From the NCBI GenBank assembly GCA_036381125.1, contig DASVDK010000152.1, positions 1 through 8,402 of the forward strand: a stretch of 8,402 nucleotides of DNA, in the 5' to 3' direction. Source of the DNA: DASVDK01 sp036381125 [NCBI: Thermodesulfobacteriota bacterium]. GTDB lineage: Bacteria; DASVDK01. The notes under the pieces are model-generated. The model ran no database searches. It had not been told where the DNA came from and was given only the letters and a program-made list of their open reading frames with translations. Position 1 is the stretch's first letter. Each line of letters opens with the position of its first letter. Made by a program: the position numbers and the translations under genes. Below, piece after piece: positions 1 through 6,823 of this stretch.

Positions 1-117
1 GAGGTCGCGGCGGCCATCCTCGGTCTCGGCAGCGCCGCCGGCCTGCGCGTCCGCAAGACCGCCGTCCGCCTTCGGGACGCGGCGGTCGTCCAGGCTACCG
101 AGACGCCCGGGGCGTAA
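1..117 (+). CDS. C-terminal end of an unrecognised protein (5' end outside window)
   Basis: Frame 1 is open from the window edge to a TAA at 115-117 and gives 38 residues: a short alanine/leucine-rich stretch with LGLGSAAG, an arginine-rich part (RVRKTAVRLRD), and an ATETPGA tail. The codon pattern (G or C in nearly all third positions) matches the genes downstream, which supports real coding. I do not recognise the family from this fragment. In several bacteria a radical-SAM protein sits just upstream of RNase E/G, but nothing in these residues confirms that here. The gene runs in the same direction as rng but is separated from it by about 540 bp of repeat-rich DNA, so the two need not share a transcript. 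Confidence 0.5.
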   Translation, partial: EVAAAILGLGSAAGLRVRKTAVRLRDAAVVQATETPGA

Positions 118-128
118 GGAGCGACTCC

Positions 129-161
129 GCCCCTCCCCCGACAACCCCTCCGGGTCGTCGG
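129..161 (+). repeat. Repeat block B, copy 1
   Basis: This 33-bp block matches positions 361-393 at 30 of 33 bases. Its core CCGACAACCCCTCC is close to the reverse complement of the GGGGAGGTTGTCAGG core of block A. B and A therefore behave as imperfect inverted repeats at the two ends of each module. Confidence 0.75.
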
Positions 162-191
162 CTGGCGCGGCCAGGCCGAGCCTCCCGCCGG

Positions 192-231
192 CAGGACCGG
201 GGACGGCGCGCAGGAGAGGCGTCGGCAGGGG
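192..231 (+). repeat. Repeat block C, copy 1
   Basis: About 40 bp, starting CAGGACCG and ending GTCGGCAGGGG, matches 463-503 with a handful of substitutions and a one-base length difference. It lies between blocks B and A in both modules, which is why the pair is read as a diverged tandem duplication. Confidence 0.6.
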
Positions 232-265
232 CGCGATGCTCCGGTGACCGGGCGAGCGCATCCGG

Positions 266-333
266 AGCGGAGGCCCGGCTTTGCCGGGCCGGAGCGCGCG
301 AGAAAGGGGAGGTTGTCAGGAGGGGGGCGGAGC
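266..333 (+). repeat. Repeat block A, copy 1
   Basis: This 68-bp block is identical to 581-648 except for C at 299 versus T at 614. It contains a perfect hairpin (272-290, 8-bp stem, TTT loop) and then GGTTGTCAGG at 311-320. Unlike copy 2, the arm that would complete a hairpin after position 333 is missing; the flank continues with unrelated sequence. Confidence 0.9.
272..290. repeat. Perfect hairpin inside block A, copy 1
   Basis: GGCCCGGC (272-279) and GCCGGGCC (283-290) are perfect inverted copies around a TTT loop. There is no T-run after it, so it is not a classical terminator. The same hairpin recurs at 587-605. Confidence 0.85.
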
Positions 334-341
334 GGCGTGGA

Positions 342-374
342 GTCAGGGGAGGGACCTGCGGCCCCTCCCCTGAC
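342..374. repeat. 12-bp perfect inverted repeat overlapping block B, copy 2
   Basis: GTCAGGGGAGGG (342-353) pairs perfectly with CCCTCCCCTGAC (363-374) across a 9-nt loop. The right arm can instead pair with 311-320 of block A copy 1: GGTTGTCAGG is complementary to 369-378. The two foldings exclude each other. Confidence 0.85.
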
Positions 375-393
375 AACCCCTCCGGGCCATCGG
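361..393 (+). repeat. Repeat block B, copy 2
   Basis: Second copy of the 33-bp block at 129-161, with three differences. Its CCTGACAACC (369-378) is the exact reverse complement of GGTTGTCAGG in both A copies (311-320 and 626-635). Together with A copy 2 it brackets the second module (361-648) with imperfect inverted ends. Confidence 0.75.
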
Positions 394-405
394 TTGCCTG
401 GATCA

Positions 406-432
406 CCCCGCGAAGCCTTCGGCTTCGCGGGG
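406..432. repeat. Perfect 12-bp hairpin with TTC loop
   Basis: CCCCGCGAAGCC (406-417) and GGCTTCGCGGGG (421-432) are exact inverted copies around TTC. This would be very stable as RNA. No T-run follows. It has no counterpart in module 1, so it is an addition to module 2. Confidence 0.85.
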
Positions 433-455
433 GCCCCGATCAGAAGCCGCGGCGC

Positions 456-473
456 CCTCGGTCAGGACCGAGG
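456..473. repeat. Palindrome at the start of block C, copy 2
   Basis: CCTCGGTC (456-463) and GACCGAGG (466-473) are exact inverted copies separated by AG. The right arm overlaps block C copy 2. An 18-bp palindrome like this can be a small hairpin or a dyad for a dimeric protein; nothing visible decides between them. Confidence 0.65.
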
Positions 474-503
474 ACCGTGCGCAGGAGACCTTGTCGGCAG
501 GGG
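463..503 (+). repeat. Repeat block C, copy 2
   Basis: Diverged second copy of the block at 192-231. It shares CAGGACCG, GCGCAGGAGA and the terminal GTCGGCAGGGG. The spacing to the neighbouring A block is longer than in module 1 because of a large extra hairpin at 499-539. Confidence 0.6.
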
Positions 504-539
504 GCCGGCGCGCCGCCGACGGCCAGGCGCCGGCCCCCT
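499..539. repeat. 13-bp perfect inverted repeat with 15-nt loop
   Basis: Positions 499-511 (AGGGGGCCGGCGC) pair perfectly with 527-539 (GCGCCGGCCCCCT). The 15-base loop is itself GC-rich and could form a short inner helix. It is one of the most stable predicted structures in the leader and is absent from module 1. Confidence 0.85.
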
Positions 540-580
540 CTCGGGACCGGGCGGCCCGCTCGTCGAAGCGGCCCCTCTGA

Positions 581-648
581 AGCGGAGGCCCGGCTTTGCC
601 GGGCCGGAGCGCGTGAGAAAGGGGAGGTTGTCAGGAGGGGGGCGGAGC
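581..648 (+). repeat. Repeat block A, copy 2
   Basis: Copy of 266-333, 67 of 68 bases identical, exactly 315 bp downstream. Near-identity in a non-coding region where flanking blocks have diverged suggests a recent duplication, gene conversion or a conserved element. Copy 2 runs directly into the hairpin preceding rng. Confidence 0.9.
587..605. repeat. Perfect hairpin inside block A, copy 2
   Basis: GGCCCGGC (587-594), TTT loop, GCCGGGCC (598-605). Identical to the hairpin at 272-290. Confidence 0.85.
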
Positions 649-660
649 CCCCCTCTTGAC
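630..660 (+). promoter_or_regulatory. Start-proximal hairpin of the rng leader, burying a Shine-Dalgarno-like AGGAGG
   Basis: Positions 630-643 pair with 647-660 over 14 positions, one of them a G-T (G-U) pair, around a GGA loop. The only strong Shine-Dalgarno-like string near rng, AGGAGG at 633-638, lies in the left arm and is paired. It is also 26 nt from the ATG at 665, which is too far for normal use. Four bases separate the hairpin from the start codon. E. coli rne is known to be autoregulated through a structured 5' leader. A comparable role here is an inference from position, and the hairpin could instead be only a repeat that landed there. Confidence 0.55.
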
Positions 661-664
661 TCGT

Positions 665-2295
<1,631 letters not shown>

Positions 2296-2299
<4 letters not shown>

Positions 2300-4593: not shown

Positions 4594-4836
4594 CTACCCC
4601 TCGAGCAGCTCGGCCCAGGCCGCCTCGTCGTAGCCGGCCGCGTACGCGCGGCCGCGGACGAGCGTGGGGATCCGCTGCTGCCCGGTGAGCGCGATCAGCT
4701 CGCTCATCGCCTTGTGGTCGGCGACCACGTTGCGCACCTCGTACGGCACGCCGCGCGCGTCGAGGAAGCGGAGCGCGCGGTCCCGCCAGGTGGGGGTGTT
4801 CGAGACGTAGACGGTCACGGGTGCGGTCGGTGCCAT
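4594..4836 (-). CDS. Glutaredoxin-fold protein without any cysteine
   Basis: 80-residue small protein of the glutaredoxin/NrdH type: beta strand VTVYVS (7-12), helix RALRFLDARG (20-29), strand VPYEVRNV, and the cis-proline loop QQRIPTLV (53-60) that normally contacts the thiol substrate. Aligned without gaps, the redox CxxC falls on P15-T-W-R18, and no cysteine occurs anywhere, so it cannot act as a thiol oxidoreductase by the usual mechanism. It may bind a partner or a thiol compound, or be a decayed copy kept in an operon. The ATG at 4836 is supported by GGAGGA at 4848-4853, directly after the stop of the cytochrome gene. It is the last gene of the minus-strand operon. Confidence 0.8.
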   Translation of the reverse strand: MAPTAPVTVYVSNTPTWRDRALRFLDARGVPYEVRNVVADHKAMSELIALTGQQRIPTLVRGRAYAAGYDEAAWAELLEG

Positions 4837-4847
4837 CGCGAGTCGTG

Positions 4848-4856
4848 TCCTCCCTA
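4848..4856 (-). promoter_or_regulatory. Ribosome binding site overlapping/abutting the cytochrome stop
   Basis: On the minus strand, TAG (stop of the cytochrome gene) runs straight into GGAGGA, 11 nt before the ATG at 4836. It is one of the clearest Shine-Dalgarno sites in the window and fixes the start of the glutaredoxin-like gene. Confidence 0.65.
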
Positions 4857-6359
4857 GAGGGTTCTCAGGTACGCGAGGAGATCCTCGATCTGCGCCGCCG
4901 TCAGGTCGAAGAAGGCCGGCATCCCCCGGGCGCCGGCGCGGATCGTTCGCACGACGGCCTCCGGCTCGCGTGGGCCTCCCGCGCGCGGCCGCTCGAAGAG
5001 GCCGGCCAGGCCGGGCCCGAGCGGCCCAGGCCCTCGTCCCCGCGGGTCGTGGCAGATGGCGCAGCGTAGCTCGAAGATCTCCCGTCCGAGCTCGGCCGAG
5101 CCGCGGGTCCGCGCGCCCGGAGGGCGGCCCATGTCCACCAGGCGGTCGCGGGCGAGCCAGGCCAGGTACGCGCCGACCGCCACCGAGTCGGGGCTCGCGG
5201 GCGGCCCCAGGCGCGGGGCCCCGAGCGGGTCCTCCCGGTCCACCGTGGCGAGGTGCCCGGTCAGGAACTCCTCGAGCGTGGCCACCCGTCCCAGCTCCGG
5301 CACGAACCGGGGAAAGAGCGCCGCGCTCCCGACGATCTCCGGCGCCGACCCGCCGGCGCCGCCGGCGCCGTGGCAGCCGCCGCAGGCGCCCCGATCGGCC
5401 CGGCCCGGCGCGCCGTCCGCCACGACGCGGCCGCGGGCGACCACCGCTTCGAGCCGCTCGAGGTCCTCGGCCGGCGGGAGCGGGTACGCCCGGCCGGGCG
5501 CCATCGGCGCCCCGTCGGCGCGCCAGGCGAGGTAGCTCACCAGGTCGTCGTTGCCGGGCGCCGGGCCGGCGCCGGTCACGGGGCCGCCCGACCGCCGGCG
5601 CCAGTACGCCACGGCCTGCTCGAAGCTCACCACGCCCGCCTCGGGCCGGAAGAGCGGCACCTGGGGGAACGCCCCCCACCAGGCGCGCACCTCGACGTCG
5701 CTGCGATGACAGGCGGGACAGCCCTCCGCCTCCCAGCGCTCGGCTCCGCGCTCCACCGCGTCGCGCACCCGCGAGTCGAGCGCGGCGAGCGGCTTGCCGG
5801 GGCGTCCCTCGCCCAGGACCGGGTCGGGTCCCGCGGGCATGCGCTCGGCGGCCCCCGGCTGCGCGTCCGCCGCCGCGGACGGTTCGGTCCGGGGCTCCCT
5901 CGGCCCGGGCCCGCCGCTCTGCGGCGGCGACGCGGACGGCCGCAGGACGACGGCCGAGGCGCGAAGCGGACGACGTGCGGGGTCGGGCGGGCGCACGGCC
6001 GCGAGGTACGACACGATGGTCGACCGATCGGCGTCGGTCAGGCCGGTGACCTCGCCGACGGCGTACCGTGACACGTGCCGCGCGACGGTCGCCGCCCACT
6101 CGTCCTCGGTGCCGCCGGCCGCGAGCGTCCGGTCGAGCGCGTGACAGGTCGTGCAGTGCCGGTCGAGCAGCGCGAGGCCGGGCGGCGCCGCCGCCGGACT
6201 CCCGGCGCCCCCCGGCACCGGGCGCGCCCCGCACCCGCCGGCGACCCAGGCCGCCGTCACGAGGAGGACGGCCGGCACGAGACGGCCGGACCGCCGGAGT
6301 CGGCGGGCGAGGCCCGCAGCGGGCGGAGGCCGGTCCGCCCGCCGTCGAAGCCGCCTCAG
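4854..6359 (-). CDS. Tetrahaem cytochrome c lipoprotein with SoxA/TsdA-like middle domains
   Basis: Exported electron carrier with four CxxCH haem sites. Numbered from the GTG at 6278 (474 residues) they are C42-TT-CH, C187-PA-CH, C299-GG-CH and C406-AI-CH. A hydrophobic stretch ending in VAGGC (12-16) is a lipobox, so the mature protein should be anchored to a membrane facing the periplasm. Domain 1 resembles small sulfite-dehydrogenase-type cytochromes; domains 2 and 3 share FP...G-V-(S/T)-(F/L)-E and YLAW patterns with SoxA/TsdA; domain 4 is class I-like with GMPAF (M453 as likely sixth ligand). A proline/alanine-rich linker lies at about 98-160. The start is uncertain: GTG 6278 leaves no positive n-region, whereas CTG 6359 overlaps the preceding stop as CTGA and adds an arginine-rich n-region. 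No ATG fits. The extent given uses CTG. Confidence 0.85.
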   Translation of the reverse strand: MRRLRRRADRPPPAAGLARRLRRSGRLVPAVLLVTAAWVAGGCGARPVPGGAGSPAAAPPGLALLDRHCTTCHALDRTLAAGGTEDEWAATVARHVSRYAVGEVTGLTDADRSTIVSYLAAVRPPDPARRPLRASAVVLRPSASPPQSGGPGPREPRTEPSAAADAQPGAAERMPAGPDPVLGEGRPGKPLAALDSRVRDAVERGAERWEAEGCPACHRSDVEVRAWWGAFPQVPLFRPEAGVVSFEQAVAYWRRRSGGPVTGAGPAPGNDDLVSYLAWRADGAPMAPGRAYPLPPAEDLERLEAVVARGRVVADGAPGRADRGACGGCHGAGGAGGSAPEIVGSAALFPRFVPELGRVATLEEFLTGHLATVDREDPLGAPRLGPPASPDSVAVGAYLAWLARDRLVDMGRPPGARTRGSAELGREIFELRCAICHDPRGRGPGPLGPGLAGLFERPRAGGPREPEAVVRTIRAGARGMPAFFDLTAAQIEDLLAYLRTL

Positions 6360-6823
6360 CGCCCCGCCCCGGGCGCGGCCGGCACGCCGGAAACGCCACG
6401 GATGACGGCGAGGTCTCCGGGCCTCACGTCGTGGGCCGCGCAGAAGCCGGCGTTCACCTCGAGCACGTAGCGGACCGGCACCGGCACCGACCGGGGTGTC
6501 TCCGTGAAGGGCTCCGCCCGCTCGACGCACCCCCGAATGCGGCCGTCGCCGCCGATGAAGAGCATGTCGAGCGGGATGCGGGTGTTCTTCATCCAGAAGC
6601 TCTGCACCGCCTCGTCCTCGAAGACGAAGAGCATGCCGGCCGAGGCCGGCAGGTGGTCGCGATGCATGAGGCCGACCTGCCGCTCCTGCGGCGTGTCGGC
6701 CACCTCGACCGTCACCGTCACCGGCCGGCCGCCCGAGGGGCGGACCTCGACCGTCGGCCGCCACTGGGCCGATGCCGCGGGCGGGAGCGCGAGGAGCAGG
6801 ACGAGCGCCGCGAGGGCGCGCAC
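6356..6823 (-). CDS. Secreted DUF192 family protein
   Basis: 155 residues with a Sec signal peptide (MRALAALVLLLALPPAASA, cleavage about 19/20) and one DUF192 domain. Family signatures are clear: QVGLMHRDHLP (49-59), GMLFVF (63-68), SFWMKNTRIPLDMLFI (75-90), then the P-rich segment and YVLEVNAG (119-126). DUF192 proteins are small beta-barrel proteins, commonly exported; their biochemical role is not established. The start is GTG at 6823, two bases after the stop of the regulator gene; this gives a well-formed signal peptide. Its TGA at 6356-6358 sits inside a CTGA that may start the cytochrome. Its tight position between a Crp-type regulator and a cytochrome hints at a role in the cell envelope under the same control. 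Confidence 0.92.
   Translation of the reverse strand: MRALAALVLLLALPPAASAQWRPTVEVRPSGGRPVTVTVEVADTPQERQVGLMHRDHLPASAGMLFVFEDEAVQSFWMKNTRIPLDMLFIGGDGRIRGCVERAEPFTETPRSVPVPVRYVLEVNAGFCAAHDVRPGDLAVIRGVSGVPAAPGAGR

What the first reader, a model, noticed from the sequence alone, without database searches (positions are those of the whole stretch)
118..664. Duplicated B-C-A module with inverted ends in front of rng
Three blocks recur in the same order: B (129-161 / 361-393, 30 of 33 identical), C (192-231 / 463-503, diverged) and A (266-333 / 581-648, 67 of 68 identical). The B core is the near-reverse complement of the A core (CCTGACAACC against GGTTGTCAGG), so each module is bracketed by imperfect inverted repeats, like a small non-autonomous mobile element or a BIME. 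A is almost unchanged while B and C have drifted, which hints at conversion or selection on A.
Basis: partly seen in the sequence, partly recalled or inferred. Interest (0 to 1): 0.6.

Follow-up and report, generated by a model that had tools for sequence, protein, structure and literature searches.

The report
Duplicated GC-rich leader before rng
Just in front of the gene for the RNA-cutting enzyme RNase G, a GC-rich non-coding stretch has been duplicated and one 68-base part of it is almost letter-for-letter the same in both copies; it probably folds into hairpins in the messenger RNA, and since no copy turned up in the limited searches possible it looks more like a local duplication than a proven mobile element.

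Summary
The direct repeats are real at the stated coordinates: B 30/33, A 67/68, C 78% over 58 columns; the best scores 65 against a maximum of 15 in 200 shuffles. Block A is far more alike (1 of 68 columns differs) than the aligned sequence 5' of it (41 of 148; Fisher p = 5e-7; block chosen after the fact). The inverted ends are mixed: not above the best inverted match anywhere in shuffles, p = 0.0025-0.014 with short ends fixed, and, over about 75 nt, 0 of 500 shuffles for module 1 but p = 0.026 for module 2. Predicted folding of the whole leader keeps the B:A bracket only in module 1. The stretch fills a 547-nt non-coding gap between a gene end resembling TIGR03936 proteins and rng; in 22 of 32 loci with that gene order the gap is at most 50 nt. 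No copy was found by one exact 23-mer in 84,980 species genomes, by core patterns in IMG/VR, by BLAST in phages and plasmids, or in 441 genomes of two phyla, but no close relative of the host was found, so power is low. Best reading: local tandem duplication in the rng leader. Mobile-repeat reading: open, not supported.

The parts
1..117 (+). 3' end of the upstream gene, stop TAA 115-117; by eye its C-terminus resembles TIGR03936 radical-SAM-associated proteins
   Evidence: translation; similar C-termini lie directly before rng in L010, L085 and L153; the 38-aa fragment alone hits no NCBIfam model and only weakly L010 by BLAST (10 residues, E 0.42)
129..161 (+). B1, left block of module 1
   Evidence: 30/33 with 361-393
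175..231 (+). C1, middle block of module 1
   Evidence: 77.6% with 446-503
266..333 (+). A1, right block of module 1; holds hairpin GGCCCGGC-TTTG-CCGGGCC and the core GGTTGTCAGGAGGGG
   Evidence: 67/68 with 581-648
342..374 (+). linker hairpin GTCAGGGGAGGGACC/GGCCCCTCCCCTGAC, -27.2 kcal/mol, uses the left part of B2
   Evidence: (I12)
361..393 (+). B2, left block of module 2
405..443 (+). extra stretch of copy 2 with a perfect 12-bp hairpin (406-432)
   Evidence: (I16)
446..503 (+). C2, middle block of module 2
499..539 (+). imperfect 20-nt-arm hairpin of copy 2; its 3' arm lies mostly in the extra stretch 521-563
   Evidence: (I7)
581..648 (+). A2, right block of module 2
630..660 (+). 14-pair hairpin ending 4 nt before the rng ATG; pairs the purine-rich AGGAGG 633-638; -28.4 kcal/mol
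   Evidence: (I14)
665..2299 (+). rng, RNase G of the RNase E/G family
   Evidence: TIGR00757 E 4e-158, above its cut-off; PRK11712 E 1e-170, below its cut-off (568 of 594 bits); PF10150 2e-108

Best explanation
A GC-rich non-coding spacer between the upstream gene and rng was duplicated in tandem (unit about 118-340, second copy about 348-648). The copies drifted and differ by two hairpin-related stretches in copy 2, while block A was kept nearly identical by recombination (conversion) between copies or by selection. Shown: the repeats, their uneven divergence, lack of codon periodicity, and predicted folding stronger than shuffles. Inferred: the stretch is transcribed as the rng leader, and its hairpins, above all the one that ends 4 nt before the ATG and buries AGGAGG, dampen or tune rng translation or mRNA decay. 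A feedback loop through RNase G itself would be the analogue of the E. coli rne leader, but nothing here tests it.
For: Repeats far above chance and beginning directly at the upstream stop codon. A 1/68 against 41/148 differences 5' of it, p = 5e-7. No module copy found elsewhere. Codon-position GC is flat in 118-664 (0.79/0.74/0.76) against 0.68/0.38/0.98 in rng, so it does not look coding. Folding energy is below shuffles: z -5.4 for 361-665 (0 of 100 as low) and -3.4 for 121-340 (1 of 200). In the ensembles of 118-720 and 118-760, AGGAGG 633-638 is unpaired with probability 0.00. Of 34 loci with a TIGR03936-like gene before rng, 2 with a failed stop search were dropped; 22 of the other 32 have a gap of at most 50 nt (most overlap) and the largest is 492, against 547 here.
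Against: No relative was found to carry the stretch, so neither conservation nor covariation supports a function. A is invariant while B1 has a change that breaks a core pair (C against A). Long gaps before rng are not unique: 5 of 88 loci have more than 500 nt to the nearest same-strand ORF of 150 aa. Both C copies put CAGG in a predicted hairpin loop, but with stems one base out of register (CAGGA in C1, CAGG in C2). No promoter or U-tailed terminator by consensus scan; no U-rich site like the one reported in the Synechocystis rne leader. GC of 76% makes stable folds easy. The A/non-A test uses a block picked for its similarity, and A against B alone gives p = 0.10.
Confidence: 0.45

Rival explanations
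1. The modules are two neighbouring copies of a genome-wide non-autonomous or REP/BIME-like palindromic repeat family of a poorly sampled lineage, inserted between the upstream gene and rng. The core GGTTGTCAGGRGGGG occurs in alternating orientation four times, plus two half-sites.
For: Inverted cores at 129, 311, 361 and 626 with half-sites at 342 and 647; outer 75 nt of module 1 complementary beyond 500 of 500 shuffles; near identity of A; a gene pair that is close-set in 22 of 32 loci with that order; module size of 200-290 nt, near the about 100-200 bp given for bacterial MITEs (PMC2229807 section 4).
Against: No module copy in the searches made or elsewhere in the window; no GTAG tag; no TSD or TA end seen by eye; inverted ends of module 2 only marginal. 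Few intergenic gaps in the window, exact patterns only, at most 2 scored candidates per genome, and no host genome make the copy search weak.
Confidence: 0.28
2. Neutral debris: a slippage or recombination duplication of GC-rich spacer DNA with no role, whose folding merely follows from its composition and history.
For: No conservation found in any relative; unequal drift; a change that breaks the core pair in module 1; C hairpins out of register; module 2 ends near chance.
Against: Folding is stronger than dinucleotide shuffles, though the inverted repeats themselves contribute to that; A is unusually well kept.
Confidence: 0.2
3. A tandem structured regulatory RNA (riboswitch-like or protein-binding leader) with two aptamer-like modules: conserved strings (B, C, A) alternate with hairpins of variable length, and B:A stems compete with local hairpins 342-374 and 630-660 before the rng start.
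For: Alternative pairings of B2 and A2: bracket, linker hairpin, or start hairpin, shifting with transcript length; variable hairpin stretches between conserved strings; CAGG in a loop in both C copies.
Against: No Rfam family at gathering score; at E up to 10, 30 sub-threshold matches, 21 of them microRNA models, best E 0.017 at the linker hairpin; no homologue; the identical stem and loop of the A hairpin is more than structure alone would demand; no covariation.
Confidence: 0.06

Closest known systems
REP/BIME repeats (GTAG and CGTC palindrome families)
   Same: Short palindromic units in an intergenic space, able to form RNA hairpins (PMC3733652, start of abstract and passages seen); alternating orientation is recalled for BIMEs.
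   Different: No GTAG or CTAC in 118-664; CGTC occurs at 156, 220 and 561 and its complement at 202 and 518, not examined for position at a palindrome end; high copy number not shown; the repeating module is 200-290 nt, not 20-40.
Bacterial MITEs (ERIC, Correia/NEMIS, RUP)
   Same: Roughly 200 nt, imperfect inverted ends, transcripts predicted to form long stems (PMC2229807 abstract and section 4).
   Different: No second locus found, no target duplication, no TA ends seen.
E. coli rne 5' UTR (361 nt, feedback regulation in cis)
   Same: Long non-coding stretch before a gene of the RNase E/G family, predicted to be structured (rne facts from PMC10989929 passages).
   Different: No Rfam match; tandem duplication; transcription start unknown; very GC-rich and without a U-rich site.

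Membership tests
REP/BIME | many extragenic copies in the genome | not testable with these tools
   host genome not held; the 8.4-kb window holds no further exact core
REP/BIME | GTAG tetranucleotide at one end of the palindrome (GTAG super-family) | tested here: not met
   no GTAG or CTAC in 118-664; definition from PMC3733652 passages
REP/BIME | CGTC tetranucleotide at one end of the palindrome (CGTC super-family) | tested here: inconclusive
   CGTC at 156, 220, 561 and GACG at 202, 518; position relative to palindromes not analysed
MITE | terminal inverted repeats | tested here: inconclusive
   present; module 1 strong over 75 nt (0 of 500 shuffles), module 2 p = 0.026, short ends p 0.0025-0.014, not above the best-anywhere in shuffles
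MITE | target-site duplication | tested here: inconclusive
   none by eye at the flanks of 125-332 (GAGCGA / CGGCGT) and 361-643 (CCTGCG / GGAGCC); the true element ends are uncertain
MITE | copies at unrelated loci | tested here: inconclusive
   none, but no close relative was searchable
rne-type autoregulatory leader | match to a leader RNA family in Rfam | tested here: not met
   gathering: 0 matches; 30 sub-threshold matches at E up to 10, none to an rne leader
rne-type autoregulatory leader | cleavage or binding of the leader by its own nuclease | not testable with these tools
   needs experiment
structured RNA | compensatory base changes across homologues | tested here: inconclusive
   only two copies; B1's change breaks a core pair and A is nearly invariant

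The most novel reading that the evidence does not exclude
A tandem, two-module switch RNA in the rng leader of a poorly sampled high-GC lineage. Each module's closing stem (B:A) competes with a local hairpin, and the last hairpin hides the ribosome-binding purines, so RNase G or a ligand could set rng output; block A is held constant because it is the recognised part.
Probability: 0.06. Interest if true: 0.6.

Novelty: new member of a known kind. Interest (0 to 1): 0.27.

Why it matters
If the leader does control rng, it would add a case, outside the E. coli and cyanobacterial rne examples, of an RNase E/G gene governed by its own structured leader. If it is a repeat family, it would mark a new intergenic palindromic element in a poorly sampled lineage. 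As it stands it is mainly a well-documented local duplication with one homogenised block.

Tried and rejected
Coding explanation: disfavoured, no codon periodicity. Rfam family: none at gathering score, 30 sub-threshold matches. Promoter or U-tailed terminator in 1-760: none by consensus scan.

Copies in IMG/VR: three core patterns gave 2, 9 and 3 contigs and a fourth gave 0. BLAST of the region against these 14 contigs finds the core stretch (16-50 nt) in each and no contig with blocks A, B and C in order. The strongest, L001 and L002, two near-identical phage-like contigs, align with A over 50 nt at 78% (E 1e-4 among these 14); I take this as chance because B and C are absent, but have not proved it. 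Plasmids: 4 records, all partial, one of them over C1 (170-234, 79%, E 0.04); phages: 1 record, 520-566.

DNA search of 395 genomes of the G139 phylum (at most 2 candidates scored per genome in the rows shown): 3 matches in 2 genomes, two to 402-442 in G163 and one to 502-559 in G252, none to A or B. The 46 genomes of the G001 phylum gave none (the tool warns that an empty answer without a positive control shows nothing).

Placing the host: RNase G searches of 18, 4, 46, 297, 191, 198, 235 and 2 genomes (the last 2 were already; 46, 47 and 55 used a cut-off of 1e-165 and 60 one of 1e-180) gave, in the rows listed, at best 61% over the full length (G866) or 66% over part (G275). The tree, made, left the window unplaced. 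A methylomirabilotal (Rokubacteria-like) origin was my guess from GC and gene content only and was not tested.

Direct repeats of at least 25 nt (E up to 1e-4) in the 600 nt upstream of rng: 2 of 100 loci (L010, L047), not examined further; some loci are the same genome fetched twice. One search's gap measure (88 of 104 loci) counts any same-strand ORF of 150 aa and is background only. In one search, L153's value of -104 (a long overlap) was kept as computed and not checked.

Full report
Observation. Self-BLAST of 118-664 gives A at 67/68, B at 30/33, and C, extended to 175-231/446-503, at 77.6%. The best direct repeat scores 65 against a maximum of 15 in 200 dinucleotide shuffles. The alignment shows that similarity in copy 1 begins right after the stop codon of the upstream gene and that copy 2 has two long extra stretches, 405-443 and 521-563, so offsets grow 232, 271, 315. 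The first holds a perfect hairpin; the second supplies most of one arm of another. Between 118 and A, 41 of 148 aligned columns differ; inside A, 1 of 68 (Fisher p = 5e-7). A was singled out because it is alike, so this p is optimistic; A against B alone gives 0.10, A against C 0.0008.

Inverted ends. B and A cores are reverse complements (exact for B2, one mismatch for B1). Scored with composition weights, B1:A1 and B2:A2 reach 19.3 and 20.9; the best inverted match anywhere in shuffles of the same region averages 20.1. With short ends fixed beforehand p is 0.0025-0.014; with ends of about 75 nt module 1 pairs more strongly than any of 500 shuffles, module 2 only at p = 0.026. Both modules descend from one ancestor, so these are not independent. 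Without weights, the best inverted match in the region is the hairpin 499-539, score 20, equal to the highest of 200 shuffles.

Folding. The same sequences also form local hairpins, 342-374 (-27.2 kcal/mol) and 630-660 (-28.4), which compete with the module-2 bracket. In the predicted structures of 118-664 and longer transcripts, module 1 forms the B1:A1 rod, B2 pairs with the linker, and A2 pairs with 647-660. When the transcript ends at 645, B2 splits between linker and A2 (13.7 and 7.1 expected pairs). Module 2 folded alone (361-665) has a shifted bracket, 364-371 with 620-627 and parts of 376-383 with 606-614, beside the start hairpin. Both modules fold better than shuffles (z -3.4 and -5.4), in part because they contain inverted repeats.

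Context. The stretch is 547 nt long and lies between a gene end (stop at 115-117) and the RNase G gene (ATG 665). The upstream C-terminus resembles those of TIGR03936 proteins that precede rng in other lineages. This is by eye; the fragment has no NCBIfam hit and BLAST support is weak. In 32 usable loci of that gene order (34 found; genomes G032 and G034 appear twice), 22 gaps are at most 50 nt and the largest is 492. With any upstream gene, 5 of 88 loci exceed 500 nt, so a long gap alone is not unique. Codon-position GC is flat in the gap. No promoter or U-tailed terminator was seen. AGGAGG at 633-638 is 26 nt before the ATG and buried in the last hairpin.

Search for relatives. The host genome is not held. 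An exact 23-base core found nothing in the collection of 84,980 species genomes, contigs under 3,000 bases not held. Core patterns in IMG/VR found 14 contigs without a module or none. BLAST found no module in plasmids, phages, or 441 genomes of two phyla (few candidates were scored per genome). RNase G relatives reach at most 61% over the full length or 66% over part in the rows listed, so no close relative of the host was in reach, and the absence of copies weighs little against a lineage-specific repeat family.

Mechanism. Most likely (0.45): local tandem duplication of the rng leader with later homogenisation of A, giving a hairpin-rich 5' region that may lower or tune rng expression. Duplication, unequal divergence, non-coding character and strong predicted folding are shown or computed; transcription, effect on translation, and any feedback by RNase G are inferred. 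Rivals: a REP/BIME- or MITE-like family (0.28), neutral debris (0.20), a tandem structured regulatory RNA (0.06).

Known relatives in kind. REPs are 20-40 bp palindromes in high copy, most sorted into families tagged by GTAG or CGTC (PMC3733652: start of abstract and passages seen); GTAG is absent here, and CGTC occurs without a test of its position. Bacterial MITEs are about 100-200 bp; most of those tabulated have inverted ends and four of seven a target duplication (PMC2229807: abstract and section 4 read); no target duplication is seen here. The E. coli rne leader is 361 nt and mediates feedback in cis (PMC10989929: passages seen); no Rfam match exists. Paper searches with 'Rokubacteria, intergenic, repeat' and 'rng, RNase G, leader, repeat, intergenic region' listed 2 and 1 papers, none of them on such a leader by title and abstract start.

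Noticed in passing
window 890-1095: RNase G carries a low-complexity insertion rich in D, E, R, G and A, where many matches to relatives break in two.
   Followed up: no
window 4594-6823 (-): Frame 4854-6764 has a cytochrome c domain at its C-terminus (PF13442, PF00034) and weaker haem-domain matches; next to it or overlapping are a glutaredoxin-like frame (4594-4863) and a DUF192 frame (6356-6823).
   Followed up: partly
window 402-442: The hairpin stretch of module 2 has two close matches (88-90%) in genome G163, suggesting a common hairpin type unrelated to the module.
   Followed up: partly
L089/L093 (G032) and L090/L095 (G034): Two genomes of a phylum with four held genomes have long gaps (492 and 442 nt) between a TIGR03936-like gene and rng; no direct repeats of 25 nt or more were reported there.
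   Followed up: partly
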